Below, piece by piece: positions 9,001 through 48,427 of a DNA stretch of 64,000 nt. Source of the DNA: Metridium senile (taxonomy: Eukaryota; Cnidaria; Anthozoa; Actiniaria; Metridiidae); NCBI GenBank assembly GCA_949775045.1, contig OX459103.1, positions 8,651,842-8,715,841 on the forward strand, in the 5' to 3' direction. The position numbers and the translations under genes were made by a program. The notes below the pieces were generated by a model. It was not told where the DNA came from. It was given only the letters and a program-made list of their open reading frames with translations, and searched no databases. Within the stretch, counting starts at the first letter, position 1, and each line of letters opens with the position of its first letter.

Positions 9001-12000
9001 AAATTGGATTTTTTTTAATCAACATCATTACCATTATCATCACTGTCATCATCACTGTCATCATTAACACCATCATCATCACAATGGCCTAAATACAGAA
9101 AGCCCAACTATTCTATCTGAGGATTCCTTTTTAAAGCGAATAAGATTCTTTTTTAACGCACGCCATTATGAGGAAAACAAAATATCCAAACCATAATTAT
9201 CATCACCATAATTATCACTATCATTACCACAACCATAACTATCATTGTTATATACCAACTGTCAAAGTTAATGTTCCCGCACTTTGATTGGGCAAGAGGG
9301 TATCACGTGAACGTGAACTATTTTGGATGTTTCCGCGGCAACGACTCTCAGCGGGCAACAATATGTTATTGACCGGGAATAACAAAACCGGAAGTCAATT
9401 ACCGGAAGTCGATTGAGCGGGAAAATCCCAGCACAAGGCGCGCGTTTCAAAATCGTTGAACCAGAAAGACAACATGGAGGAAAGTAAGAGATATGCAAGC
9501 AGAACAGAGGAAGATATTGAAAAGTTGTTGGACGAAAAAAAGTCTAAATCCACAAAGAACTCCACCAAACTAGCCGTGAAAATTCTAAGGGATTTTTGCT
9601 TAGGAAAAGGAGTTTCTGTGGCGACTTTGAAGAACTAAGCAATCCTGAATTAAAACAGTTCTACGCAAGTGCAAGAAAACGAGATGGCTCGTTTTTTCTT
9701 TGACAGTTGGTATATAACAAAACACTTATAGACTAAAACCTCGGGAAACAGTATGTTTCCCTCGGTCCCAGTCAATAAGTGATAATTATCACAACCATTA
9801 TTCTATACCGATATTTATTATTATTATTATTACCATCTTTATCATAACGATAACGAATCACCATCACCATCACCATCACCATCAATATCTAAATTCATTG
9901 CTATTATTGTTCACAGGGAGATGATTTAACCCACACCTGTATCTACAATACTATGAACCGTAACAAACTCACTTACGTAAGTATCGGGCAATATCCGGAC
10001 CCAACATCTTACAAGTACAAATGAAAACAAATATTAAATTAGAGCACGGTTCTATTCATTTATTTACAGGGTGGTTTGTCTACCAGAGAAGAAATGTGCT
10101 TAAACTTTATTTTCTACTATCCATATATTCCTACACTCCCCAGGACTTGTGCATCCAGTGATCTTCAAGCTGGATCAAAAATGATGAAAAAGTACTATCC
10201 GTAAGTGTAGACTACACAACGCAAAAACTACAAGGAAACGAGTTGAAGTTCGATCGTTAAATGTTGCTTAGTGTTGGTCAATGTTGGTGATGTGATGTGA
10301 TGTGATGTGATGTGATGTGATGTGATGTGATGTGATGTGATGTGATGTGATGTGATGTGATGTGATGTGATGTGATGTGATGTGATGTGATGTGATGTGA
10401 TGTGATGTGATGTGATGTGATGTGATGTGATGTGATGTGATGTGATGTGATGTGATGTGAGTGATGTGATGTAATGTGATGTGATGTGAATGATGTGATG
10501 TGATGTGTGTCATGTTATGTGATGCGATGCGATGTGATGTGATGTGATATGATGTGATGTGATGTGATGTGTGTGATGTGATGTTATGGGATATTATGTG
10601 ATGTGATGTGAATGATGTGATGCGATGTGATGTGAATGATGTGATGTGATGTGATGTGATGTGATGTGATGGGATGTGAATGATATCATTTGAATGATGT
10701 AACGAGATGTGATGTGATGTGAATGATGTGATGTGATGTGAGCTATGTGATGTGATGTGATGTGATGCATGTGAGCTATGTGATGTGATGTGCTGTGATG
10801 TGATGTGTGTGATGTGATGTTATGGGATGTGAATGTGATGTGATGTGAGCGATGTGATGTTATGTGATGTGATGTTATGTGATGTGATGTGATGTGATGT
10901 GATGTGATGTGATGTGATGTGATGTGATGTGATTGATGTGATGTAATGTGATGTGATGTGAATGATGTGATGTGTGTCATGTTATGTGATGCGATGCGAT
11001 GTGATGTGATGTGATATGATGTGATGTGATGTGTGTGATGTGATGTTATGGGATATTATGTGATGTGATATGAATGATGTGATGCGATGTGATGTGATGT
11101 GATGTGAATGATGTGATGTGATGTGATGTGAATGATATCATGTGAATGATGTGACGAGATGTGATGTGATGTGAATGATGTGATGTGAGCTATGTGATGT
11201 GATGTGATGTGAGCTATGTGATGTGATGTGATGTGATGTTATGGGATGTGATGTGATGTGATGTGAGCGATGTGATGTTATGTGATATTATGTGATGTGA
11301 TGTGATGTGATGTTATGTGATGTGAATGATGTGATGTGATGTGAGCTATGTGTTGTGATGTGATGTGATGTGATGTGATGTGATGTGATGTGATGTGATG
11401 TGATGTGATGTGATGTGATGTGATGTGATGTGATGTGATGTGATGTGATGTGATGTGATGTGATGTGATGTGATGTGATGTGATGTGATGTGATGTGATG
11501 TGATGTGATGTGAGTGATGTGATGTAATGTGATGTGATGTGAATGATGTGATGTGATGTGTGTCATGTTATGTGATGCGATGCGATGTGATGTGATGTGA
11601 TATGATGTGATGTGATGTGATGTGTGTGATGTGATGTTATGGGATATTATGTGATGTGATGTGAATGATGTGATGCGATGTGATGTGAATGGGATGTTAT
11701 GTGATGTGGATGATGTGATGTGATGTGAGCAATGTGATGTGATGTGATGTGGTGTGATGTGATTTGATGTGAATGATGTGATGTGATGTGTGTGATGTTA
11801 TGTGATGTGATGTGATGTGATGTGATGTGATGTGATGTGATGTGATGTGATGTGATGTGATGTGATGTAGAACGGCCTCTTATATTGTAACTATTACATG
11901 TCTTACATATAGTGAGCTTCTACCAAGAGGAAGTGTATGGTGGAATGCTATCATAGCAAGCAACAAGACCTGGACGGGCGAGATGTCCGCTGACTACAGG

Positions 12001-24600: not shown

Positions 24601-27600
24601 ACAAGTTTATTTGGTGAATTATTAAGTGTGTAAGGTAAAAAGTGTGTCTACATTTGCATGTTTTTTTTTTACCACAAACTTACCGCGCGCACTTCCGGTT
24701 AATATAAGCCAATCCGAAGCATTTTTGTCGCGTCACCAACAGTTCCAGGATGGCGTCGTGCGAGAGAGTTGCTTCCGGTGTCAAACTTCTATAAATATGT
24801 CCTTAACATAAATATAACTTTCATTGGGAAACCATTACAAGCGATCGATGTTTAACCAATCATTTTATCTAGGTATCGTACCTGACCATTTTAAACTCGC
24901 AAGAGTAATACCTGTCCATAGAAAAGGATCTCAACTTAACTTTTTACAGATATTTTACAGCATAATAGAAAAGCCTGCTTATGTCCAAAAGGTTGATAGA
25001 TTTCATTAATAAGAACAACATGTTATATGGAAAACAACTTGGCTTCATGTCCTCACATTTAACTATATCCACGCAATCTTGTCTGTTGTTGATAATATTC
25101 AAAAAGCTTTCAATGATAACTTGTTTTCTTGTGGAATATTTCTAGATCTGAGCAAGGCTTTTGACTCGGTCGATCACTGTATTTTAATAAATAAGCTTGA
25201 ACACTATGTAATAAGAGGAACGGCAAAAGACTGATTTACTTCATATCTACCTATAACAGAAAACGATTAGTTTCTCTGGAAAGCGTTAACTCAGAACTCA
25301 GTCGAGAACAGTTCATGTGGTGTGCCACAGGGGTCAGTTCTTGGCCCCACACTTTTTTGTTGTGTATCAATGATTTCCATAATTCTTCATTAACTTTTGA
25401 TTTACATCTCTTTGCGGACGATTCGAACCTCTTTTATTGAAATAAGAGCCTTCAAGTAATATAGGAACAAATAAATTCTCAAAAATTAGGATCAGAAATT
25501 GTCAAAATGTGCACTATTGACGAGTCTTAAAGTGCACCTGGTGCCCTTCATGATATTTTGCGAATCTGTTGTACATGAGGTGTATAATAAGTGTACTTAA
25601 TTTTTTTGATGTCGACCTTTCCTTTCTGAGATATAAACATTTGAAATCTGAAAATGCAAATGAAGTGACGTCATCACAGGCCTCATTAAATATACAAAAG
25701 CTCTCTGGAAATAATTATAGCAATTTTTTAAAGCTCAATATCTGTATTACTAATATTCACACTACCATTAACATTTTTACTACTTTACAAAAACAAGCTT
25801 GCTGTCAGCTTTGAAACAAAACTTTGACAAATTCCTGGGATGACGTCACCTCATTTGCATCAGAATTCAAATGTTCATATCTCAAAAAGGAGAGGTCGAC
25901 ATCAAGAAATATTAATTACTCTTATTATACACCTCATGTACAACAGATTCGCAAAATATCATGAAGGGCGTCAGGTGCACTTTAACATTGTCTTAAGGTG
26001 GCTGACTACTATACGAAAAACAAATCAGAATTTATTATTAGAAAGGTATTTCATAGGAAATTTAATGGTGATTCAGATGAAAAAGAGAAAATTGGGGTGT
26101 CCCGAGCTCGTTTCTGAGATATTGGACTTTGAATAGTATCCACTCTGCAAGTTTTCGAACGAAAAATGGCAAAAACTGCGCTTGGAACCAAATAATTCAC
26201 AACATCAAAACTAAAAGAGCTGTGGACGTATTTTTTTTTAGAAAATCTTACGTGAGGATTTTTCTCGAGATCTGTTAAATAATTAATAGGAAATATGTCC
26301 GAGTAAGGTGAACAAATATGTAATATGTATGCTCATAAAGTCCGAAATCGAGCGTAAACGAGCATTTGTATTAGCAGACACAGTATTTTTTTTATAGTTG
26401 TAGAAATCAGAAATTTCTTAAAGTTTGTCAAAACAACGATTTTTACCTGTTCTTCCTGAATATCAAAAACAAATCATAGGGTCCCGGGCGAATTTTTGAG
26501 TTTTAAGAGAAAAACGAGCCTAAAATCAGCTTTTTCCACCATTTTGACTACTCTGCCAGTCCTGGGAACGGGAGAATTACAACGTTATTTCTGATTGGAT
26601 ACATTTTACCCAATCCAATGAGCTGTTCCTTTTGAACTTACGCCATCTTGTCACGCAACACTCGTGCGATGTTGAGGGAAAGTTTTTCAACTACTCGAAG
26701 TATTTCTTTTCAAAAAACGTCCCTTAAAACAAGTTTATGGATTATTTCTCAAAGGCAATTCACTTTTCTGTAAGTAGAAGCTATAATAAATGTCGCTATG
26801 TATCATTTCATGTGTTCGTTGTTTTGTTTTAACTAATTTTCCATCGTCTTTTTGACATATTTCAACTTTCATATCCATTATTTTTCCAACAAAAACGTGC
26901 TAAAATTGTCTTTACGACAGAAAATGCCTTTTATATAATGCTTATGTTTTCGTTTTATTTCACTAATGTTGTGCAATTGTTGTTTGGATAAGTTTTGAGT
27001 CCTATTTTGCCGTTTTTCGTGAAATGTGAGTTTTGTAATTAAAATAATCGCCAGTTCGGCCACCTTTGAAGTTCCTTTTACTTTTATAAATTCACATATC
27101 AAGGTGAAACAGATCCCTTTCAAATGACAGCGTATCTAAATCATGATAATGGCTGTTAAATTGCTTAACGCTTTAAAATATACGGCACAAAAATGAATGT
27201 TTGGATTCCCTGTATCTCTACCGTGACTCGATGTCGTATGTGCGCGAAGTCATGCGCAGTTTTCTAGTTTTTGTATAGTAGTCAGCCACCTTAACATTGA
27301 AAAATCAAACTTTCTTATCTTTCATCCACGTACACAAGAACAAGTTTTAGCATGATATCGTAATTAGAAAAACCTGAGTAAGGTTTCGGTTCTTCAATTT
27401 TTTGAACGGGATTCGGACCCAATATCTTACAAGTACAAATGTAAACAAATAATAAAATAAAGCATGTCTCCTTTTATTTATTTACAGGGAGGTTTATCTA
27501 CTAGAGAAGAAATGTGTTTAAACTTTGTTTTCTACTATCCACATATTCCGACACTCTCCAGGAAATGTTCATCCAGTGATCTTCAAGCTGGATCAAAAAT

Positions 27601-30600
27601 GATGAACAAATATTATCCGTAAGTGTAGACTACACAACAGTGCCTGATTTAACGCAAAAACTACGAGGAAACGAGTTGAAGTTAGATGGTTTAATGTTGG
27701 TCATTATTGGTCAATTATGGTGATGTGAGTTATGTGAGCGATGTGATGTTGTTATATGATGTGAGCGATGTGATGTTGTTATATGATGTGAGCGATGTTA
27801 TGTGAGTGATGTCATGTTATGTCATTTCATGTCATGGAACTTTGTCAAAAACACCATCAATGAAGCCGAGAAATATTATGTACGTGTATATAAACGATCT
27901 TCCATCAGTACCGAAAGTATGCAACATTGAGTCCTATGTCGACGACTCAAAGGCTCTTTTATCTTTTCCGATAAAAGATGTAGTAACTGCCCAACACAAA
28001 CTTGAGGAAGATCTTCAGCATGTGGCGGCTTGGTGTTGCAAAAATCAATTACTCATCAATACAAAGAAGACCAAGTTCCTTTTGGTTGGCACGCGTCAGC
28101 TGTTACGAAGACTCCCCGAGGAAATGTCTCTGTCTTTCTTAGGAGAAAAAATTACATTTGTTTCAAGCGCAAAAGACCTTGGGATAACATTGGACAGCAA
28201 TTTGACATATGACAATCATATAAATGAACTGACATCTTCATGCATGTCCAAATTAAACTTTGTCAGATTAACAGGGTCAAAGACAGCTTTGATAAAGACA
28301 CACTTCATTTAATAATTTCTGCTTTAGTACTAAGTAAGTTGTACTCCCGGGGGGTGTACTCCCTTTGTCGAAGTGGTAGGGGTGATCGGCGTACCTTTTA
28401 GGGTTAAAAATATTTCCTGTACGTACCTTTTAGGGTCCTGGCTCAAAAATCACTTACATAACATGATTCCGTACCTGTAAGGGTCATTTTTACTCTGCTT
28501 TGTTGCTAAAAGTAAGCTTGGCTGGCAAGAACATCGCACAGCCGTACCTTTTAGGGGTTGAAATCAACAAGGCTTTAACAGTTATTTTTGTCTGTGCGTA
28601 CCTTTTAGGGGTCGTTTCCAAAACCTCCGCCGATCACCCCTACCACTTAGACAAAGGGAGAACCCCCCCCCCCCCCCCCGGGGTTGTACTACTGTTCGTC
28701 AGATTGGTCCAACACTTCAATTACTAACATTAAGAAACTTCAAGGTGTACATAATTTTGCTTGTAGAATAATTACAAATACTAGGAAATTTGAGCACATT
28801 ACACTTGCTCTTCGTGATTTAGGCTGGTTGCCTGTAAAGGAACATCTGTTATATAGAGACTCTATTATGTCGTTTAAGTGTATGAACGGGCTTGCACCGT
28901 CATATTTATGTGATCTATTCTGTAAACGCAAGGTAATACATGATCGTAATACCCGAAATCGGGAGTCCTTACAAATTCTTCTTCTTCTTCTTCTTCTTCT
29001 TCTTATTATGTCATGTCATGTCATGTCATGTAAGTGTTGTGATGTGAATGATGTGAGCGATATGATGCTATGTAATGTAATGCAATGTGATGTGATGTGA
29101 TGTCAGCGATGTCATGCCATGTCATGTGATATGAAGTCATGTAATGTGATATCATGTCATGTAAGTGACGTGATGTGATATGATGTAAAGTGACGTGACG
29201 TGATGTGATGCGGTGTGATGTGGTGTGATGTGATGTGATGTGATGTGATATGATGTAAAGTGACGTGACATGATGTGATGTGGTGTGATGTGATATGATA
29301 TGATGTGATATGATATGAAGTGATGTGATGTGATGCGGTGTGATATGATATGATATGATGTGATGTGATGTGATGTGATGTGATGTGATGTGATGTGATG
29401 TGATGTGATGTGATGTGATGTGATGTGATGTGATGTGATGTGATGTGATGTGATGTGATGTGATGTGATGTGATGTGATGTGATGTGATGTGATGTGATG
29501 TGATGTGATGTGATGTGATGTGATGTGATGTGATGTGATGTGATGTGATGTGATGTGATGTGATGTGATGTGATGTGATGTGATGCGATGTCAACGATGT
29601 CAGCGATGTCATGTGATATGAAGTCATGTAATGTGATATCATGTCATGTGAGTGACGTGATGTGATGTGATATGATGTAAAGTGATGTGATGTGATGTGA
29701 TCTGATCTGATGCGGCGAGATGTGATGTGATGTGATGCGGTGTGATATGATATGATTTGATATGATGTGATGTGATGTGATGTCATCGATGTCATGCCAT
29801 GTCATGTGATATGAAGTCATGTAATGTGATATCATGTCATGTGAGTGATGTGATATGATTTAAAGTGATGTGATGTGATGTGATGTGATGTGATGTGATG
29901 TGATGTGATGTGATGTGATGTGATGTGATGTGATGTGATGTGATGTGATGTGATGTGATGTGATGTGATGTGATGTGATGTGATGTGATGTGATGTGATG
30001 TGATGCGATGTCAACGATGTCAGCGATGTCATGTGATATGAAGTCATGTAATGTGATATCATGTCATGTGAGTGACGTGATGTGATGTGATATGATGTAA
30101 AGTGATGTGATGTGATGTGATCTGATCTGATGCGGCGAGATGTGATGTGATGTGATGCGGTGTGATATGATATGATTTGATATGATGTGATGTGATGTGA
30201 TGTCAGCGATGTCATGCCATGTCATGTGATATGAAGTCATGTAATGTGATATCATGTCATGTGAGTGATGTGATATGATTTAAAGTGATGTGATGTGATG
30301 TGATGTGATGTGATGTGATGTGATGTGATGTGATGTGATGTGATGTGATGTGATGTGATGTGATGTGATGTGATGTGATGTGATGTGATGTGATGTGATG
30401 TGATGTGATGTGATGTGATGTGATGTGATGTGATGTGATGTGATGTGATGTGATGTGATGTGATGTGATGTGAAGCGGTGTGTTGTGATATGATATGATA
30501 TGATGTGATGTTATGTGATATGAATGATGTGATGTAATGTGATCAGAACGGCCTCTCATATTGTAACTATTATATACAGTGAGCTTCTACCCAAAAGTAA

Positions 30601-35878: not shown

Positions 35879-36268
35879 TTGTCTACACATATTATTTGAG
35901 TTATCCTATACGGTGAGCTCACGGAAAGTTTGCCTGCATCAAGGTGGAAAGGGAGGATAAATACTAATTAAGTAGCAAAGTAAATGTCAAGACAAAAGTT
36001 TAAATAATAACTAAATAATCACAAGGATTGTTTCATTTTAAAAGCTTAAAAAAGTGCAACTTTTTTTAACTCTCTAGATGATACCGCCCCCCCCCCCCCC
36101 ACCCCCCACGGTTATAGCCCGTGATTATTGATTTTGGTCATTGACCCAGTTGTTGCCCTACGACCACCCCCGCCCCCTCCCCCTTAAAACTATCAGCGCC
36201 CCCTATGGCCTTAACGACCTTGGCACGCCTGTGCAACTCGAAACCTTCACTGAGTATTTGCTTGCATC

Positions 36269-37929
36269 ATGGCGTTGGTTAGCTCGCTCACTTTGCTTCT
36301 TACAGCATCAGTCTTGTGTATTTCCAATGCAGCCCTCGTTGACGAGTATGATCACTTCGCAGCTCTTGATCCCGACGAGAAAATCAAGCTATACTGGACG
36401 ATCAATCGAGCTGATGAGACCGTCTCGTTCGCCTTAGATGGCGCTACTACTGGCTGGGTTGGTTTTGGTATTTCAACGGGTCAGGGTAAAATGGACAAAG
36501 CTGACATGGTCATTGGATGGGTTAAGGACGGCAAAGCGTATCTATCGGTAGGGTTGAACCTTAATTTGTTTGTCTTTAAATTTCAGGCGGAAATTTCGAA
36601 CGAACAAGGACTAGGAATCCCCATTAAAACAGACAGTTTTGTTTGACAAGGAAATTTGTTTGTGTATCTGGAGGGAGAAAACTTCATAAATCTTCCTTTG
36701 CTAAATGACGGGTAAATGATAAAGCTAGATAGCATGCAAGCTAAAGATTATGGGCGCGGTAACGTTGATTAGAACAATAGCGAGAAGTATCCTCTTTCGC
36801 ATCATCAGCAGGCAACTCCTTTTACTCCTTTGGGATTCCTTTGTAACGGTTTTATTGACCGTGAGGAGAATGAGAACGAGAACGAGGAAGCACATATCCT
36901 TCATATTTGTTTTTTTGGTTGTACGTGTTTGTGTTATATGACCATAACATATGTTGCAGTGGTATATGATGAAACAATTAAAAAACCCGTAAAATTGGAA
37001 AAATTTGCTCGTAAAAGGAAGTACTGTTGAACATCTAGTATTATTTAGTAAACTTTTCATTCACCCATGCATAATCCATTAATTAATTAATTAATTCATC
37101 CATCCATTCATCCATTTATCCATTTATTAATTTATCTATACTAGTTTACTCGCTAGTTTCCATTTATAATTTATCAATCCATTCATCCATCCCTCCATCC
37201 ATCCATTCATCAATCTATCCATCCATCCATCCATTCACCCATCCATTCATTTAATTGTTCTATTTCTACTAGGATCGACATGGTGTTGGTCATTACCCCA
37301 AGATAGACGACCACAATGACTACAAGTTAATCTCTGGCATGGAAAGCAATGGCCATACTATCATCAAGTTTAGCCGTAAGATAGACACTTGTGATCCACA
37401 GGACCTGAAACTACAGGTACTAGAATACAATGACAATAGTAGCTACAGTATTTACAGTAACAACAGCAATGACAATAGCAATAATCCCCTCTACAGTTCG
37501 CTGCGCCATTTTGAAAGGTAGCTGGACCTTTGCATCGTGCAATGATAGAGACCTTTTAACACCTCGCGGGACAATTATTCACATGACTCATTGTAAGTTC
37601 AACGTTCGTCTCGCATCGATGCAAAGGTCCAGCTTCCTTTCAAGACGGTGCTTGAAACTGTGAAGGGGACTTTTGCAGTCTTTATACATAGCATGGCTCA
37701 AAGAAAATAAAAACAACAGCAACAACGACATCAATGACAATAGCAACTACAGTAGTAGCAATAACAACAACAGCAACAAAAACAGCAGCAGAAACAGCAA
37801 CAACAATATCAATTGCAATGTCAACAACAGTAGTAGCAATTACAACAACAGCCCAAACATCAACAACAACAACAACAATGGCAACATCACTTGCAACAAC
37901 AACAACAACAACAATACCAACATCACTTG

Positions 37930-37962
<33 letters not shown>

Positions 37963-40900
37963 TAACACTAGAAACATCACTTGCAGCAACAACAATAACA
38001 ACACTAGCAACAACACTTCAAACAACAATAACACTAGAAACAACATTTCAAACAACAATAACACTAGAAACAACACTTCAAACAACAATAACACTAGAAA
38101 CAACATTTCAAACAACAATAACACTAGAAACAACACTTCAAACAACAATAACACTAGAAACAACACTTCAAATAACAATAACACTAGAAACAACATTTCA
38201 AACAACAATAACACTAGAAACAACATTTCAAACAACAATAACACTAGAAACAACACTTGAAACAATAACGACACTAGCAACATCACTTGCAACAACAACA
38301 ACACTTGCAACAACCAATATTAAAAGAAATCAACATTAATTTGAATATTCCACATTTATTTCGCCAGGAGGGTACTTCTAAGGTCATTTTTGCACTCAAC
38401 GATGAAGACCCTGAGTCTGCAGAATCAATCAAACAGCACACGTTTAGAAATGCACGCAGTATGCTGCTGCTAAACTCGCAGGGAAACAGAAAGGAGCCTG
38501 ACTCTTCTTGGAAACATTTTGACATGCTAAACAAAAACGTAAGTAGATTACGATAAAATAAGAAAGAAAATAAAGAAAGGTTTCCAAAAATGTCTCGTTC
38601 TTTACGAAGTTTATTGTCACAATATGTGTTCTGTTATAGTACAGCGTACCAGCCAAAGACACGACCTACCACTGCAGTATACACAAAATACCTGACTTTA
38701 AAGACAAGACACACATTGTTAGGGTAAGCTAGTAGTTGTAATACACAATTATTTATTTATTAACAACATTTATACATTATTATAATTTTTATAAAAATAC
38801 TGACAATGATTTGAAAATAACAATAATGAAAATAAAAACAATTTTGATAATGATGTATATAAACATAATATGAATGATGATGATGCTCCATCTACAGTTC
38901 GATCCAGTGCTTCAGCGTGGTAATGAAGGTGTCGTTCACCATTTAATCGTCAAGGTCTGTGATCCTGACTTCCCTGAACATCACATTAATACCTCAGCTG
39001 AATGTTACGACAAACAAAATATGCCTGCAGAGGCGTTAAATTGCAATGGCTTTGGTCTACTAGTTGCAGCATGGGGAGTAGGCGGAGGGGTAAGTATAGG
39101 TCAAGGGAAGAGAGGGTTTAGTATTACAATTCTTGGAGGAGGGTTATATAATGAACATAGGTTCTTTTAGGAAGGGGTAGTGAAGAGAGACTTGGGGCCG
39201 CATAATTCTTGGGGGAGGGGTATATAGTGAAGAGAAACTTGGGGCAGCATAATTCTTGGTGGAGGAAGGGGTAGTGAAGAGAGAGTTGGGGCAGCATAAT
39301 TCAAACACATTTGTTCTATTTCTTCACTTCCAGCATGTCCGTCCAGTAATCGTAATATTCCAGTAAATATTTCAGCCACATGTGAGGCATTTGAGTACCC
39401 TGATAGTTAATATTATCAGTATCAGATCACCATTATATATCATCATTTTTTTCATCCACAAATACTAGAATATCCGGCCAGTAATATGTTTATGATTATT
39501 TTATATATCTGTCAGCCATTTGTGTATCCTGACCATGTTGGTTTTCCTATCGGTGTCGAGTATATTGGAAGACATTTTATCCTTCAAATACACTACGATA
39601 ATCCTGTCTTGAAAACTGGTAAGAAAGAAATGTCTTAACAATATTTTTGAACTAATGCAGATTTGCAGACTCAATTATAAGTCATCTTGTGTAGTTTAAC
39701 TTGATGACGAAGCCTAGTTTAAGACCCATCGCCACTTACCAGTATGCTTTGCGTTGTCTATTTTGATTAGATTGTTATAATTTATTCGCAGTCAGTCGTA
39801 TTGCGAGAAAACAAATCAAACAAATCAAACAAATCAAACAAACAGGAGGAGCCAACGATCAGCTGGGACAATTATAACTGTTCTTACATCCCAGCCAGAT
39901 ATGAGTCAATTTGAGTCCCAGGAAACGTTTGGGTTGGCCCAAGAATGTTTCCCAGGAAAATAATTTTTTTAGAACCCCCAAAAAAGAACGCTTAGCAGTG
40001 ATCAGTGTTTGAGATTTGTACAAGAAACGGGGCTACCCGAAAATTTACGTTTTCCAGGTAATTTCAGAATGACAGGATGTATATAATGAAAAACGTGAGA
40101 GCGTAGAATAGTCAAGGTACAGGATTTAATTCCCAGGAACTTACTTATAAGAACAGTTTTTTTAAAGAACACCCCCGTTGGCTCCTCCTAAACAAATCGG
40201 TAAATACCCACTCGCATCGTAGAATATATCAAAATGCCTGAATGTGTAATCCTTCTGAGGTGCATGCTGGTAAGTGCTCGTATAACCGGAAAGGACTTGT
40301 TCTTTGGCCTCTTTCTTAAAATAGAAATCATTTATTTGCTAGTTGATTATTTTTTTAGATGTCGTTGACAGTTCTGGAGTAAGGTTCTTTTACACTGACA
40401 AGATTAGACAGTACGATGCTGGGGTTTTGAGTACTGGTGCTTCAGTAAAATCTTGGATGATGATCCCTCCTAAACAAAAGGCCTGGAGAACGACTGGATA
40501 TTGTAGAAAACAGTGCACAGAAGAGGTGAGAATACGAACGTCTTCCACTTTGAATTGGGGTCAACGCGGCAAAATATATAAAATTTACTTTTACTCCCTG
40601 TTTTTGTTTTACTTTTTTACTTCTTTTACCTGTAACTAGCTCCGCTCATTTTTGCTCCATTTTCAAATTTTAAATGTCCGACGGAAGCATGAAGCTGCTT
40701 AAATTAGATACATGAGAAAAATATCACATACCCTTTGCGGGAATTGACCTCAGTGCCATGGTTTCGGCTTTCTATTCCGATGTGTAAACCACTACACCAA
40801 AAGGACCAACCACGCTAGACACGCAGCCGGACAATGTAGTATAGGGGAACTATGGGGGGTCCCAGGGCGATATTAATCGTATGGAAACGCAGAAGTGAAA

Positions 40901-43900
40901 GGAATAATGAATTGAAATGCGTTCGGTGTATAAAGCTGCTTTAAACACTTACGTACTATTGCCGTAATGTCTTTCTTGTAAGGCTTTGAAAAACAGCTCA
41001 CTGCCCGAGAAGGGAATCAAGATTTTCTCATCTGCTTTGCATACCCACTTGGCAGGTAAGAGACTGGAAACGAGTCGTGTTGACTTGGTACCAATCCTTG
41101 TCTACTTTTTATCCCGCAGGTGACAAACTAATTTTGTCCATCTGTTAAATATTAAAGATTCATTCTTGTCTAGGTGTTGCCGCGTGGACCAAGCATGTCA
41201 GAAATGGAGTGGAACTGCCTGAGATCGCTCGTGACAACAACTATGACTTTAACTTTCAAGTAAGCATACAGCCGCTCTTATGAATCTTGATATTGAAAGG
41301 GTTTATATCTGAAAACAGCTTATGTTTGAATGGGGCGTTTTTTTTTTTCAAAGGTATTTCATTTGAAAAAGACTCGCATTACTGACAGTACTTATAATAT
41401 AAATATTTGAAAGTATAGATATTTGGAAGTGTAAACATTTGGAAGTATGAATATTTGGAAGAATGAATATTTGGAAGTGGCTTATGTTAGCAAGGAATCC
41501 CTCGCATTGCTTTAATGTAAGTTACACTATAATGATAATTACTGTTGTTTCAACGTGTAGGATATCCAGTTTCTACAAAAGGAGATTCACTTCAAACCTG
41601 TAAGTTTACATCAACAATATCACCATCGTTTTAAAATTGGAGTGCTTTTGATATGATGAATATCACTATTATCATAAGCGTTATTATTATCATTTTCATG
41701 ACTATTATCAGCATCATTACCATTATCATCACTGTCATAATAAACACCATCATCATCATCATCAGAATGGTTTAAATACAGGAAACTCAACTATTCTACC
41801 TGAGGATTTCTTTTAAAAGCGAAAAAGATTCTTTTTAACGCACGCCATTTTGAGGAAACAAAATATCCACACCATAATTATGATTATCACTATCATTACC
41901 ACAACAACAACTAGTAGTCTGGGAGCATCTGTAGTGCCGTGAGATTTTCGTGAAGATTAAACGCGACCTGTGCAGAAGTGTTCAGTAGGACCTAAAGAAC
42001 ATTTTAAATGTTGTCGGCAATTCTGTAAGTTCTGCAGGGGGGGCCTACGGGGCGTTTGAAAACTACCCACTCTAATCTTGCATGAAAACGAGGCTGAATC
42101 ATAAAAACTAAATGAAAGCTGGTCTTAATTTAGTATTTTTCATTATAATACTGAGTTTCTTGATAGTCTGAGATGTTGTACTGAATATCATCGTTTGTAG
42201 GGATAATTATAGGGGTCACGTGACCGGAAGTTAAGGCTCAATCTTTTTGTTATCCTAAAAATGACTTAAAATTTGGACTAGACTGACTAAACATGAACCT
42301 ACAAATGAAATCTCGATTCTACTAACATTTTAATCATCACTGTCATCAGTGGAGGGGAGGGGGGGTCAGTGGAGGGGAGGGGAGGGGGGGGGGTGTCAAA
42401 TGCAATTTTTTAAAATCTCTTAAGCCTCGGTCAAACGGCAATGATAGTTCATGATAGTTGATGATAGTTCCAACTATCATGTGCGTTTGACCACCAACTA
42501 TCATGCACTATGATGGATTATCATAGAGTTTGAACATGTTCAAATTTCATATTATAGTCGATAATAGTCTTTGCCGTTTGACCGCGCGTACAGGATAGTT
42601 GATAATAGTTGAGACACAGCTGTCGTTGTTCCACACTAGCATCTGGTAGTGTACACGCAGAATCGCTTTATAAAGTGCGCTCTTTGTTGGTGGTAGCTAT
42701 AGACTGTTTGACTGAACCTGATTCTTGTGAAATATCTTCCACCTGTAGTGAGGTCTTTGACTTCGGTGATGGCTGTCCTAGGCTGATACAGTTAGCAGAC
42801 ATGCTTCTCTACACGTCTCTGTTGGATGCAGTGTTGTTCCAAGGTTCCAAAAAGCGTTTATGACATCTTCAACTGCATTTAGTGTAATTGCTTTCCAGCA
42901 AGCAACTTTTCTCTTTTCCAAAAAAAAACCTCCCAGCTATATCAGCGGCGTGGAAGACGGGTAGTGCTGCCAATTTACCACTGCCCAGAGCACAATCAAT
43001 CGGATCAAGCTCAATCACACCATGATTATTACCAGTGCCAGCGACAAACAGTGTCTTCTGACACAGCTCTGGGTATCGTCTTCAAGATAGAACGAGGACG
43101 TCCATGACGTTGGCAGTTTCGTCTAGAGCATTGAGCAAGATCTTTGTATCCAGCTTTTCTTGATTACTTTGAAGATGGTCTACACCTTTATGTGTTGCAA
43201 GACTTGTACATCGTCAGGCCACATCATCCCGTAGTTACGTCATTTCAGCTTGATCGAGGAAGGGGGAACGAGAAACTGACAGGTACTTCGTTAGTTCGTT
43301 CTTAGTCGTACCCATGATGAGACAGGAGTCTTTGCATGGCGACCTTAATAAAAACTTATAATAAATTGACTTTAAATTTTGCGGAATATAGCATGAAACT
43401 GATCAATTGCACATTACAATATATGGGATCTTGACCAGCCTGTCTTTTATCTTGGGTACTTGTTTTAATGGACTATGGTAAATCATATCGGTCGAAAATC
43501 AAGCAGACCTTATCGATGCATTCATACTTCCTTGTAATTATACTGTTAAAGTGCTCAGCCAGTTGCGAACAGTATTTTATATCGTTTGGCTTATCATGGA
43601 ATCGGAGCTCTCAGTGTGTCACACTGCATCTCCCAGACGTGTGGAGTTAAAAGTGAGGCTGGTCAAGATCCCATATATCGCTAAATGCATGCATGATGTG
43701 TAATTGACCATTTTCATGCTATATTCCGCAATATTTGAAAATCAATTTATTGTAATTTTATTATGCTAGGTCGCCATGCAAAAGATCCTGCCTCATCATA
43801 TTGCTAAGACTAAGAACGAGCTAACAAAGTACCTGGCAGAGAAGTTCCTCGATCGTGCTGAGATATGATGTAACTATGGCCTGGGGATGTACAAGTCTTG

Positions 43901-46900
43901 CAACATATCAAGGTGTAGACCATCTTCAAAGTAATCAACAAAAGGTGGATACAAAGTGCTTGCTCCATGCTCTAGGCGCAACTGCCGACAGTGCTTCTGA
44001 GCATTCCCATGCAAACACGGACGTCCCCGTCCCCGTCCCCTGTTGTATCTAAGGGTTTCCAAGACATATTCTTTGGCACTGACACTGGTAAAAAACATGG
44101 TATCATTGAGCTTGGTCCGATTTCTTGTGCTTTGGGCAAAGAACATACTACAGGCTGGAGATGTTTCGCAGGAATCAGGTTCAGTAAAACAGGCTACCAC
44201 CAACGCAGTGCGCACTTTATGAGGCGCTCACTACAAGATGCTACAATCATGTGCAAAATACCTTGGGACATTATCTGGTTTTAACATGAAAAATATTTCA
44301 ACATCATTTTTCCGTTTCCCCCTCTCCCCCGTATCAATGTTGAATTATATATGGGAATGTGAAACGGTTGTCATTTGAAAGACCAATCAACATTGCTTAG
44401 GGGGAAGGGGGTTTGCAAATCAAATTGATAGATTTTGTATATATTTTTTAAAACGAAAACGATCATAAAAAGTGACATTTCCCAACAATTTTGCACATGA
44501 TTGTAGTGCTACAAGTTGCTAGAATAACGACTGTGTTGGCAGTCCCAGTTTGCATGCCACAACCAGATGATTGATGTGAGAAAGATGAATGGATCCCTGT
44601 AATGACAAAACAACAGCCCTCACCGCAAGCAGTAATCTATTTGGTGTGGGTGTAAATAAAAACAAATGCTCACTCAGTGTCGAAAACCGGGCTTGAACTA
44701 CACCAACCTCTGTTCTTCTTGTAACAGTGATAATTCGTGTGGAAAGACAGCTACTATCAGCAAGAGTGAGTGCGACGAAAATGATGACAGTGATGATTAA
44801 AATGTTAATAGAATCGAGATTTCATTTGTAGTTGCAAGTTTAGTCCGTTTAGTCCAATTTTAGTCATTTTTAGGATAACAAGAAAATTGAGCCTTAACTT
44901 CCGGTCACTTGACCCCTATAATTATCCCTACAAACGATGATATTCAGTACAACATCTCAGACTATCAAAAAACGTAATATTATATTGAAAAATACCAATT
45001 TAAGACCAGCTTTCATTTAGTTTTTATGATTCAGCCTCGTTTTCATGCAAGATTAGAGTGGGTAGTTTTCAAACGCCCCGTAGGCACCCCTGCACGACTT
45101 ACAGAAGTGCCGACAACATTTAAAATGTTCTTTAGGTCCTACTCAACACTTCTGCACAGGTCGCGTTTAATCTTCACGAAAATCCCAAGGCACTTCTTTC
45201 AGCGACATCTGCTCCCGGACTATAGAGCGGATTTTGTATGACTGTGCAAACAGCACGGACACAGCACGGTACACTACAAATGAAATTTAGAGAGTTTTTC
45301 CTGTGCCTATCAAAACACCACAGGTTGGTTACGGCAGTGATTTCGAATGTCTTTATAGAAACTACGGCAGGAACACGGCACGGCCGTGAAGGCACGGCAC
45401 GGTCACGGCAAAAACTTCGAATCTTTTTATATAAATTACGACACGGTCACGGCACGGTACCGTACGTTGCACAGTCATACGAAATCCGCTCTATCATCAT
45501 CACCACCATTATTCTATACCGATAATTATCATTATTATTACCATCATTATCAGACTTATCATGACAATAACGAATTACCATCATCACGTGCACTATCACT
45601 ATCACTATCACCATCAATAACTAAATGCATTTCTATTATTGTTCACAGGGAGATGATTTAATCCACACCTGTATCTACAATACTATGAACCGTAACAAAC
45701 TCACTTACGTAAGTATCGGGCAATTATTTGAAGTATTTTACCATATTTATTTTTTGAATTATTAATTAAGTGTGTAAGGTAAAAAGTGCGTCTAAAAAGT
45801 GTCTGGCTGCGGGTCCCTGTAGTATACCTACTATATATAGTGTACCTACTATATATAGTATACCTACTGCAATATTAAAATTGCTACAAAGCGTCATTTC
45901 GAAACCATTACAAACGATATTTAACCAATCGTTTTCTCTAGGTATCGTTCCTGACCACTTTAAACTCAAAAGAGTAATACCTATCCATAAAGAAGGATCT
46001 CAACTTAACTTGAAATATCGCCCTAACACTTTGCTCTTTCGAATTTTACAGAATTCTAGAAAAGCTTATGTCCAAAAGGCTGATAGTCGATGATAGGTTA
46101 ATTTTAATCTTATTAAAATAAGAACAACATATTATATGGAAAACAACTTGGCTTCAGGTCCTCACATTCAACTGTCCATGCAATCTTGTCTATTGTTGAT
46201 AACATTCAATGATAACTTGTTTTCTTGTGGAATATTTCTAGATCTGAGCAAGGCTTTTGACTCGGTCGATCACTGTATTTTAATAAATAAGCTTTAACAC
46301 TATGTAATAAGAGGAACGGCAAAAGGCTGGTTTTATTTCATATCTACCTAACAGATAACAATTATATTAGTTTCACTGGGGAGCATTAACTCAGAACTCT
46401 AGAACATTTCCACAAGGGTCGGTTCTTGGCCGCACACTTTTTTTTTGTTATCAATGATTTCCATAATTCTTCATCAATTTTTGATTTCCATCTCTTTGCA
46501 GACGATTCGAACATCTTTTGTTGTAATAAGTATTCAAGCCTTCAAGTATTAGAGGAACAAATTAATAAATTCTCAACTAATTACCATCCAAAATTGGCAA
46601 AATGTGCACCACTAACAAGTTATGTCTTAACATTGAAAAATCAAACTTTCTTATTTTACATCCACCCAAGAAAACGTTTTAGCATGATATCGTAATTAGG
46701 TATAAGCCTGAGTAAGGTTTCGGTTCTTCAAGTTTTCAACAGGATTCGAACCCAAGATCTTACAAGTACAAATGTAAACAAATAATAGAATAAAGAATGC
46801 CTTTTTTTTATTTATTTACAGGGAGGTCGGTCTACTAGAGAAGAAATGTGCTTAAACTTTATTTTCTACTATCCACATATTCCGACACTCTCCAGGAAAT

Positions 46901-48427
46901 GTTTATCCAGTGATCTCCAAGCAGGATCAAAAATGATGAACAAGTATCTACACAACAGTCCCTGATTTTACGCAAAAACTATGATGTGATGCGATGTGAG
47001 TGATGTGAAGTTATGTGATGTGATGTTATGTAATGGGATGTTATGTGATGTGATGTGATGTGATGTGATGTGATGTGATGTGATGTGATGTGATGTGATG
47101 TGATGTGATGTGATGTGATGTGATGTGATGTGATGTGATTTGATGTAATGTGATGTGATGTGAAGTTATGTGATGTGATGTTATGTAATGTGAGTTGATG
47201 TTATGTAATGTGATGTGAGTGATATCATGTGATGTGATGTGATGTGATGTGATGTGATGTGATGTGATGTGATGTGATGTGATGTGATGTGATGTGATGT
47301 GATGTGATGTGATGTGATGTGATGTGATGTGATGTGATGTGATGTGATGTGATGTGATGTGATGTGATGTGATGTGATGTGATGTGATGTGATGTGATGT
47401 GATGTGATGTGATGTGATGTGATGTGATGTGATGTGATGTGATGTGATGTGATGTGATGTGATGTGATGTGATGTGATGTGATGTGATGTGATGTGATGT
47501 GATGTGATGTGATGTGATGTGATGTAGAACGGCCTCTTATATTGTAACTATTACATACAGTGAGCTTCTGCCAAGAGGAAGCGTACGTAGGAACGCTATA
47601 ATAACAAGCAACAAGACCTGGACGGACGAGATGACCGCTGACTACAGGAAGATGATTGACGAGCAGGCTGGTTATTACGTGAACTACCCGTACTGTTACA
47701 ACCATGAAAGGAACATAACTTTAACGGTAGGTTTTTGGGCTACCTTTTTTTATTGGAAGAAACTGGTGCTATTTTTGAATTTTCTGGGGACTGCAATTCT
47801 ATCGTGTAGAGTGCTTCCCCTGGGAATATATTACATCACCCCTTTAGTGAGATCCAGTCCAAAATCTATGTTAGTCTCTGCCATAACGCTCAAAGAGGTT
47901 TAGCCCTGGAAGACTCACCCACCTCCCCTCAGTTATAATCACATTCTCCTTTTTAGAGCTACACGCTCCTACTACCTCAGGCTGATACTCTCCATATCTT
48001 ACAAATACCTGAGGCTTTGTCTTTGAGAGTCACCAATGAAAATCTACAACTGTTGTCGTCATACATTCACCAAAAAAGCTTTCTGTATAATGTGTTTATT
48101 TTGTGGCTCAGCAGAGATTTATATGCATTATATATGGCATCATCATCATAATCATTATTACCACCACCACTACCATCATCATCATAATGATCATCATCAT
48201 GATCTTAATTATCATCTTTAAACTGATATCACTAAATGAAGCTATTTTTTTTTTTATTGTTCTTCCAGGAAGCGATCAAAGACAAATACCAATTCCCGGT
48301 AGTAAAGATCACTACCTCACTTCCAAAAGCAACAGACAACTGTGATGTTATCAGTTCAGCCACATCACTCACCGTCTGGGTGTTGTCAAAACTCATTGGA
48401 CTTACAGCAATGTTGCTTTTAGTCTAA
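36269..48427 (+). CDS. DBH/MOXD1-like copper monooxygenase, copy 3 (exon 12 donor lost; possibly truncated)
   Basis: Exons: 36269-36547, 37273-37416, 38368-38538, 38640-38723, 38898-39089, 39516-39618, 40359-40525, 40983-41055, 41174-41259, 41561-41599, 45649-45708, 46822-about 46943, 47561-47726, 48269-48427 (TAA). All reading frames are open and the copper ligands are kept. Compared with copies 1 and 2, about 16 bases carrying the end of exon 12 and its GTAAGT donor are missing near 46947. Read-through reaches TGA at 46963-46965 and gives a 513-aa protein with all ligands but no C-terminal exons 13-14. A weak GT at 46944 (GTATCT) has the right phase and would rescue a protein of about 614 aa. 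The exon 1 donor is GTAGGG rather than GTAAGG. Exon 4 has KDTTY where the others have KHT. Exons 13 and 14 remain open, arguing for recent damage or for rescue. Confidence 0.85.
37065..37252. repeat. CATC/CATT microsatellite, intron 1 copy 3
   Basis: Shorter and more degenerate than in copies 2 and 4, ending before exon 2. Confidence 0.85.
37508..37646. mobile_element. CTTGAAAGGTAGCTGG MITE, intron 2 copy 3
   Basis: Same element and position as 17242-17382. Confidence 0.7.
37709..38330. repeat. CAA-rich satellite, intron 2 copy 3
   Basis: Begins with the CAGCAATGACAATAGC unit, then ACAACAATAACACTAGAAAC units of about 30 bases (38020-38265). Open frames of about 200 aa are artefacts. Confidence 0.9.
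39105..39300. repeat. 47-bp minisatellite, intron 5 copy 3
   Basis: About three units with GGGGCAGCATAATTCTTGG, as in copies 1 and 2. Confidence 0.8.
39844..40189. mobile_element. MITE with AGGAGGAGCCAACG ends, intron 6 copy 3
   Basis: AGGAGGAGCCAACG at the left and CGTTGGCTCCTCCT at the right, inserted in a CAAAT-repeat tract; AAAC on both sides may be the duplication. Absent from copy 2. Confidence 0.8.
40735..40960 (-). mobile_element. tRNA-derived SINE-like repeat, intron 7 copy 3
   Basis: On the minus strand: GGTGTAGTGGTTTACACATC (A-box-like) after the GTCCGGCTGCGT body. The most complete copy at the intron 7 site shared with copies 1 and 2. Confidence 0.6.
41914..45222. mobile_element. 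3.3-kb imperfect palindrome (long inverted repeat element), intron 10 copy 3
   Basis: The outer arms 41916-42350 and 44775-45221 are clear reverse complements. Inner segments also pair: about 42665-42730 with 44150-44215, 43150-43215 with 43890-43960, and 43305-43445 with 43660-43800. The dyad centre is near 43550. The arms carry decayed coding-like stretches (TEPDSCE in both arms; frames 42609-42863 + and 43874-44215 -) that I do not recognise. Copies 1 and 2 lack it. Confidence 0.8.
45222..45494. mobile_element. 273-bp MITE with ATAGAGCGGATTT ends
   Basis: ATAGAGCGGATTTTGTATGA at the left, TCATACGAAATCCGCTCTAT at the right, directly abutting the 3.3-kb palindrome. The interior is rich in CACGG repeats. 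Confidence 0.8.
45890..46700 (+). mobile_element. Decayed LINE, intron 11 copy 3
   Basis: Same truncated element as 24820-27350: [34 protein letters not shown] and ADDSNIF pieces with frameshifts. It lacks the two TTAA insertions, so it shows the empty sites. Confidence 0.75.
46983..47525. repeat. (TGATG)n satellite, intron 12 copy 3
   Basis: About 540 bases, the last 290 almost perfect TGATG. It ends in GTAGAACGGCCTCTTATATT just before exon 13, as in copy 1. Confidence 0.95.
48139..48215. repeat. (CAT)n microsatellite, intron 13 copy 3
   Basis: CATCATCATAATCATTATTACC repeats, matching the place in copy 1. Confidence 0.8.

What the first reader, a model, noticed from the sequence alone, without database searches (positions are those of the whole stretch)
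46822..46980. Copy 3 has lost the exon 12 splice donor
Copies 1 and 2 read TACTATCC|GTAAGTGTAGACTACAC and TATTATCC|GTAAGTGTAGACTACAC; copy 3 reads AAGTATCTACACAAC, so about 16 bases with the donor are gone. Read-through stops at 46963, giving 513 aa with all copper ligands but no C-terminal anchor: possibly a soluble, secreted form or a pseudogene. A weak in-phase GT at 46944 could rescue.
Basis: partly seen in the sequence, partly recalled or inferred. Interest (0 to 1): 0.75.

Follow-up and report, generated by a model that had tools for sequence, protein, structure and literature searches.

The report
Broken splice donor in duplicated gene
In a sea-anemone-like animal, one of eight side-by-side copies of a copper enzyme gene has lost 16 letters that hold a splice signal, so it most likely makes no working enzyme; this looks like an ordinary early step in the death of a duplicated gene.

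Summary
Copy 3 lacks exactly 16 nt spanning the end of exon 12 and the GTAAGT donor. The seven other copies found in the array keep that donor. Read-through gives 513 aa and a TGA at 46963-46965. The gene is a 14-exon DOMON + Cu2-monooxygenase (DBH/MOXD1-like) gene, probably of an anthozoan; all six copper ligands are encoded.

The "soluble secreted enzyme" reading is weak. Truncation removes more than an anchor: two conserved cysteines go too, whose counterparts in human DBH tie the C-terminus to the CuM and DOMON domains. Intron retention, use of the donor-like GTGAGT at 46996, and exon skipping each leave a stop 163-761 nt before the last junction. The in-phase GT at 46944 scores below all 101 array donors; 34% of the window's plus-strand GTs score as well.

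Copy 3 also has a ~300-bp insertion between the conserved upstream block and its ATG, and a changed exon 1 donor. A sister copy is plainly frameshifted.

Best reading: a young pseudogene or strong hypomorph in a birth-and-death array. No transcripts or reads were available, and copy 3's other exons are still open.

The parts
36269..36547 (+). copy 3 exon 1 (hydrophobic N-terminus, start of DOMON); donor GTAGGG, GTAAGG in the six other copies that have this exon
37273..41599 (+). copy 3 exons 2-10 (37273-37416, 38368-38538, 38640-38723, 38898-39089, 39516-39618, 40359-40525, 40983-41055, 41174-41259, 41561-41599); frames open, AG/GT ends present
45649..45708 (+). copy 3 exon 11
46822..46947 (+). 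what is left of copy 3 exon 12 (holds the CuM ligand Met); acceptor AG present
46947..46948 (+). junction of the 16-nt deletion that removed the exon 12 donor
46944..46949 (+). in-phase GT (CAA|GTATCT), chance-level donor score
46963..46965 (+). TGA that ends the 513-aa read-through frame
46996..47001 (+). GAT|GTGAGT, the best-scoring GT of 46822-47010 apart from one 4 nt into exon 12; moderate (3.8, below 100 of 101 array donors); lies after the stop
47561..47726 (+). copy 3 exon 13, open, AG and GT present; holds the cysteine matching DBH C565
48269..48427 (+). copy 3 exon 14, open to its stop; holds the cysteine matching DBH C596 and the hydrophobic C-terminus
35945..36246 (+). 302-base insertion in the copy 3 leader or promoter, between the two arms of a 26-nt direct repeat (35919-35944 and 36247-36272); absent from copies D, W1, W2, W4
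10070..10208 (+). copy 1 exon 12 with its donor (comparison)
27488..27626 (+). copy 2 exon 12 with its donor (comparison, closest copy)

Best explanation
Copy 3 is a recently disabled (or nearly disabled) member of a tandem array of DBH/MOXD1-like copper monooxygenase genes. A 16-nt deletion removed the donor of intron 12 (shown). Its transcripts, if any, should then skip exon 12, retain intron 12, or use the GTGAGT at 46996 (inferred). Each of those puts a stop well upstream of the last exon junction (shown by computation), so the mRNA should mostly be degraded (inferred). Any protein made would lack the CuM methionine (after skipping), or lack the C-terminal segment with two conserved cysteines plus the hydrophobic end (after read-through). 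An insertion in the leader and a changed exon 1 donor point the same way. The remaining exons are still open, on this view because the damage is recent.
For: Unique 16-nt deletion, donor kept in 7 of 8 copies. Outcomes: retention 513 aa with the stop 761 nt before the last junction; 46996 donor 513 aa, 196 nt; exon 12 skipping 466 aa, 163 nt. In-phase GT 46944 scores -0.7, the 101 array donors (23 distinct by exon and sequence) 2.1 and more, median 9.7. Cysteines C554 (21 of 23 proteins) and C589 (20 of 23) lie in exons 13 and 14 and align with human DBH C565 and C596, which bond to C394 in the CuM domain and C154 in DOMON (PMC4846438, passages). Leader insertion. Unique exon 1 donor GTAGGG. 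Sister copy C is frameshifted in exons 2 and 6, so copies do die in this array. [quoted passage not shown] Weak: none of six poly(A) hexamers lies in intron 12 of copy 3, but none lies in that of copy 1 either.
Against: Copy 3's exons are free of internal stops (read in frame) and the other 25 splice ends keep AG or GT. Copies 2 and 3 differ under net constraint in exons 3-12 (dN/dS 0.33). Copy-3-only changes in exons 3-12 are 7 nonsynonymous to 5 synonymous, and none of the changed residues is a copper ligand. These are also what a very recent loss would show. Exons 13-14 show no significant relaxation by the N:S test (Fisher p=0.69). The donor-like site 46996 is itself only moderate, so which outcome prevails is open. 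No transcript data.
Confidence: 0.7

Rival explanations
1. The in-phase GT at 46944 is used as a donor. Copy 3 then makes a nearly normal 614-aa enzyme with its C-terminus, in which KYYP at the exon 12/13 join is replaced by N.
For: The frame is kept across the join. Exons 13 and 14 and their splice ends are intact. The exon would be only 9 nt shorter than the normal 131.
Against: CAA|GTATCT scores below every one of 101 array donors; 34% of 3818 plus-strand GTs in the window score as well or better (34-35% by either of two matrices). A better donor-like site (46996) lies 52 nt downstream. Open exons 13-14 are expected even without function: P(no stop) is 0.63 for 13 neutral substitutions, indels not simulated.
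Confidence: 0.12
2. Copy 3 is a neofunctionalised, constitutively soluble, secreted monooxygenase of 513 aa.
For: DOMON, Cu2_monooxygen and Cu2_monoox_C domains are all present; all copper ligands are kept. In copies 1 and 2 read-through stops at once because the donor GTAA supplies an in-frame TAA, and public gene models P0003 (Nematostella), P0040 (Porites) and P0084 (Acropora) end at or close to that place.
Against: Expected decay of the mRNA (for the distances; the rule is recalled). Two conserved cysteines lose their partners and, by homology to DBH, a strand of the CuM sheet and one of the DOMON sheet are lost. Only 5 of the 113 aligned sequences with the CuM methionine (112 homologues and copy 1 itself; the 120 homologues held are the best of 386 hits) end near this place, and those may be incomplete gene models; P0084 also lacks the His-x-His stretch.
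Confidence: 0.08
3. The deletion is an assembly error or a haplotype-specific allele, and most animals carry an intact copy 3.
For: Paralogous array beside a long TGATG microsatellite, where assembly is hard; only one assembly is held and no reads.
Against: A clean 16-nt gap outside any homopolymer, with ordinary paralogue divergence on both sides; the genome search (best candidates only) found eight places, none of them a second, intact version of this copy.
Confidence: 0.1

Closest known systems
MOXD1 (DBH-like monooxygenase protein 1) genes of anthozoans, e.g. Actinia tenebrosa and Nematostella vectensis models
   Same: DOMON + Cu2_monooxygen + Cu2_monoox_C architecture, copper ligands, cysteine pattern; best match P0001 (unnamed) 77% identical, Nematostella 62%, Actinia tenebrosa 44-65%
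   Different: Copy 3 lacks the donor needed to splice normally between exons 12 and 13; the intact copies look like ordinary members
Human dopamine beta-hydroxylase (PDB 4zel)
   Same: Nearly full-length match to the family profile (E 3.4e-146); the predicted fold of the relative P0001 matches chain A with TM 0.75 (by query) and 0.83 (by target); cysteines aligned
   Different: Read-through copy 3 lacks the C-terminal segment of the family, including the matches of DBH C565 and C596
Tandem-array pseudogenes formed by loss of a splice site (a general kind; recalled)
   Same: One lesion disables an otherwise intact duplicate; neighbouring copy C is also broken
   Different: Copy 3 has no frameshift or internal stop in its exons, so the death is recent or incomplete

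Membership tests
DBH/MOXD1-type copper type II ascorbate-dependent monooxygenase (gene family of the array) | DOMON domain followed by Cu2_monooxygen and Cu2_monoox_C | tested here: met
   Pfam E 1.9e-33, 1.8e-39 and 4.6e-48 for read-through copy 3
DBH/MOXD1-type copper type II ascorbate-dependent monooxygenase (gene family of the array) | Copper ligands His-His, His, His-x-His and Met | tested here: met
   Invariant in 23 aligned proteins including copy 3; positions by alignment with DBH and PHM, which residues are ligands is recalled
DBH/MOXD1-type copper type II ascorbate-dependent monooxygenase (gene family of the array) | C-terminal segment with the two cysteines matching DBH C565 and C596 | tested here: not met
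   Encoded in exons 13 and 14 but absent from the 513-aa read-through product
Pseudogene | At least one lesion that prevents a normal product | tested here: met
   Donor of intron 12 deleted; that no other donor replaces it is inferred
Pseudogene | Relaxed selection after the lesion | tested here: inconclusive
   Exon 14 has 10 copy-3-only changes (7 N, 3 S) against 12 in exons 3-12; the seven other copies pooled 16 against 136, p=0.0002; W2 alone p=0.045, W4 alone p=0.14; gene conversion of exon 14 among other copies confounds it; N:S test p=0.69
Pseudogene | No stable functional transcript | not testable with these tools
   No RNA data for this species
Soluble secreted enzyme variant | A stable mRNA ending in or before intron 12 | tested here: inconclusive
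   None of six poly(A) hexamers in 46944-47560; other signals not tested

The most novel reading that the evidence does not exclude
In this family the intron 12 donor can itself carry an in-frame TAA (seen in copies 1 and 2), so intron retention gives a short enzyme that ends at exon 12 without the C-terminal hydrophobic stretch. Copy 3 would have fixed a form of that kind by deleting the donor, giving a dedicated soluble monooxygenase beside anchored sisters.
Probability: 0.06. Interest if true: 0.5.

Novelty: new member of a known kind. Interest (0 to 1): 0.2.

Why it matters
It is a clean example of how a copy in a young tandem array may start to die: one small deletion removes a splice donor while nearly everything else is still intact. 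It also warns gene finders, since an annotation by homology alone would call copy 3 a full-length enzyme. It would matter more only if the short form were shown to be made and active.

Tried and rejected
Rescue by non-canonical donors: a GC at 46921 is out of phase (phase 0), a GC at 46850 is out of phase and very weak; no ATATCC in 46801-47000. Premature polyadenylation: six hexamers searched in intron 12, none in copy 3, none in copy 1, five in copy 2, so the absence says little. Selection tests on exons 13-14: underpowered and confounded; a looser count polarised against copy 2 gives N:S 13:10 in exons 3-12, 5:5 in exon 13 and 8:3 in exon 14 for copy 3, against 16:11, 10:4 and 3:1 for copy 2. 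A GT at 46826 with score 4.67 was set aside because it would leave a 4-nt exon. The reverse-transcriptase look of frames in intron 11 of copy 3 (45770-46692) was read by eye only; three frames gave 0 Pfam matches at E 0.01. Species name: not determined; the best named proteins are anthozoan, so sea-anemone-like is an inference. A genome-wide count of the family and the spread of the leader insertion in the whole genome could not be obtained. The AlphaFold model of P0001 is confident overall (mean pLDDT 90.3) but has 10-residue blocks of 53 and 64 at 541-560 and 50 at 591-600, so it does not by itself show the disulfide geometry; that rests on homology to DBH. The N-terminal signal and C-terminal anchor were read by eye, no predictor was run. 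NMD and its 50-nt rule are recalled; of the papers in the listing none was read. The listings were seen; passages of two papers were read.
Full report
What the locus is. The window lies at G000:C9:8651842-8715841 of a 389-Mb genome in 169 contigs. It holds three complete copies and part of a fourth copy of one 14-exon gene. With the flanks read (C9:8545000-8769999) the array has eight copies: A (+), B (-), C (-), D (+), W1, W2, W3 and W4 (+); these are also the eight places of the DNA search. W3 is the finding's copy 3. The product has a DOMON domain followed by the two copper type II ascorbate-dependent monooxygenase domains. It is a DBH/MOXD1-type enzyme: human DBH (4zel) matches the family profile over nearly its whole length. 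The best named protein relatives are anthozoan (Oculina, Nematostella, Actinia); the best of all, P0001, is unnamed, 77% identical, and comes from a 1895-base contig too short to hold the introns, so probably a transcript (inference). P0001 reads DKYYPELKPK across the exon 12/13 join, which supports the ordinary splice.

The observation. Copies W1 and W2 carry GTAAGTGTAGACTACAC at 10201 and 27619; nothing else in the window matches it with up to 3 mismatches. In the eight-copy alignment, seven keep GTAAGT at the end of exon 12 and W3 lacks 16 nt there. The gap against W2 is clean, with near-identical sequence on both sides. Read-through runs to 513 aa and a TGA at 46963-46965.

State of the rest of copy 3. 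The other 13 exons are open, and 25 of the 26 splice ends keep AG or GT. The six copper ligands are encoded. Three more things set W3 apart. First, its leader: the block conserved upstream of the ATG in D, W1, W2 and W4 is separated from the W3 ATG by about 300 bp, between the two arms of a 26-nt direct repeat at 35919-35944 and 36247-36272. The upstream arm looks like a decayed leader-plus-start (CATCAAGG for CATCATGG). B and C are more diverged in this region. Second, the exon 1 donor is GTAGGG in W3 and GTAAGG in the six other copies that have exon 1. Third, exon 14 of W3 carries 10 changes seen in no other copy, 7 of them nonsynonymous. Against 12 in exons 3-12, this share is higher than in the seven other copies pooled (16 to 136, p=0.0002) and than in W2 alone (p=0.045), but not than in W4 alone (p=0.14). 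Exon 14 encodes the same peptide in A, B and W1, which looks like gene conversion, so this is weak evidence.

What splicing can do. Four outcomes were computed. Retention of intron 12 gives 513 aa with the stop 761 nt before the last junction. Use of the GTGAGT at 46996 gives the same 513 aa with 196 nt to the last junction. Skipping exon 12 gives 466 aa, because exon 13 then begins with TGA; that product lacks the CuM methionine, and its stop is 163 nt before the last junction. Use of the GT at 46944 keeps the frame (614 aa). By the usual rule (a stop more than about 50 nt before the last junction; recalled), the first three mRNAs should be degraded. The 46944 site scores -0.7 on a matrix built from the array's own donors. 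The 101 donors score 2.1 and more (median 9.7; they are paralogous, 23 distinct by exon and sequence). Of the 3818 plus-strand GTs in the window, 34% do as well as 46944, and 35% on a recalled human matrix. The 46996 site is itself only moderate on the first matrix (3.8, below 100 of the 101), though it scores higher than the normal exon 12 donor on the recalled one (83 against 74). [quoted passage not shown] None of six poly(A) hexamers lies in intron 12 of W3, but the same is true of W1.

What the 513-aa protein would lack. The loss is not only of an anchor. In human DBH a strand after the dimerisation domain (residues 561-566) joins the CuM sheet and is tied by C394-C565, another strand (608-614) joins the DOMON sheet, and C154-C596 ties DOMON to the C-terminus (PMC4846438, passages). 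The array's C377, C554, C133 and C589 align with C394, C565, C154 and C596 (numbering of copy 1, DBH positions counted by me with an offset of 39). C554 is present in 21 of 23 aligned proteins and C589 in 20 of 23; the two rows without C554 are the read-through product itself and P0116, and P0062 also lacks C589. So the read-through product would leave C377 and C133 unpaired. That makes a stable, secreted, active form unlikely, though it was not tested.

Evidence that bears against a dead gene. Copies W2 and W3 differ with dN/dS 0.33 in exons 3-12 and 0.51 in exons 13-14, and the N:S counts unique to W3 do not differ between the two parts (7:5 and 9:4, p=0.69). No stop or frameshift has appeared in exons 13-14, but 13 neutral substitutions would leave them free of stops with probability 0.63 (indels not simulated). 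This fits a recent loss as well as a living gene.

A point outside the finding. Because exon 12 ends in phase 2, the normal donor GTAAGT supplies an in-frame TAA: W1 and W2 read through as ...KYYP*. Of the 120 homologues held (the best of 386 hits) plus copy 1, 113 have the CuM methionine aligned. Five of these, all homologues, end near this place. Three of the five are cnidarian models ending at or within a few residues of the junction (P0003, P0040, P0084). They may be unfinished models (P0084 clearly is) or intron-retention products. This is the only thread that keeps the soluble-enzyme reading alive.

Verdict. Copy 3 is most likely a young pseudogene or strong hypomorph in a birth-and-death array; copy C, with an 8-nt duplication in exon 2 and a 19-nt deletion in exon 6, is a clearer one. 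Shown: the deletion in this assembly, its uniqueness among eight copies, the frames, the domain content, the leader insertion. Inferred: decay of the mRNA, misfolding of the product. Not shown: expression of any copy.

Noticed in passing
C9:8545000-8769999 (window 1-64000 and flanks): Eight copies in the stretch read, two of them inverted (B, C); none to the right of W4 in the flank read, and copy A on the left has no recognisable exon 1 in the 36 kb before its exon 2.
   Followed up: partly
copy C, minus strand, C9:8627054-8627205 (exon 2) and about C9:8625070-8625152 (exon 6): Copy C is a pseudogene: 8-nt tandem duplication in exon 2 and a 19-nt deletion in exon 6, both frameshifts.
   Followed up: yes
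exons 1 and 2 of the copies: Exons 1 and 2 differ by a mean of 1.4% and 1.3% between copies, exons 3-14 by 3-17.5%, which suggests gene conversion at the 5' end of the genes.
   Followed up: no
window 35919-36272: Insertion between the arms of a 26-nt direct repeat in the leader of copy 3; pieces of it resemble sequence about 7 kb upstream of exon 2 of copy A, so it may be a dispersed repeat.
   Followed up: partly
window 41600-45648: Intron 10 of copy 3 is about 4 kb, against about 450 bases in copy 2: a large insertion of unknown nature.
   Followed up: no
window 46983-47525 (copy 3), from about 10290 (copy 1), from about 17300 (copy 2): Long TGATG-type satellite in intron 12 of copies 1 and 3 and another simple-repeat array in intron 2 of copy 2; the copy 3 deletion lies about 35 nt upstream of its satellite.
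   Followed up: no
copy D, exon 14 (C9, left of the window): Copy D has a 24-nt in-frame insertion just before the hydrophobic C-terminus (NRQQTTVM).
   Followed up: no
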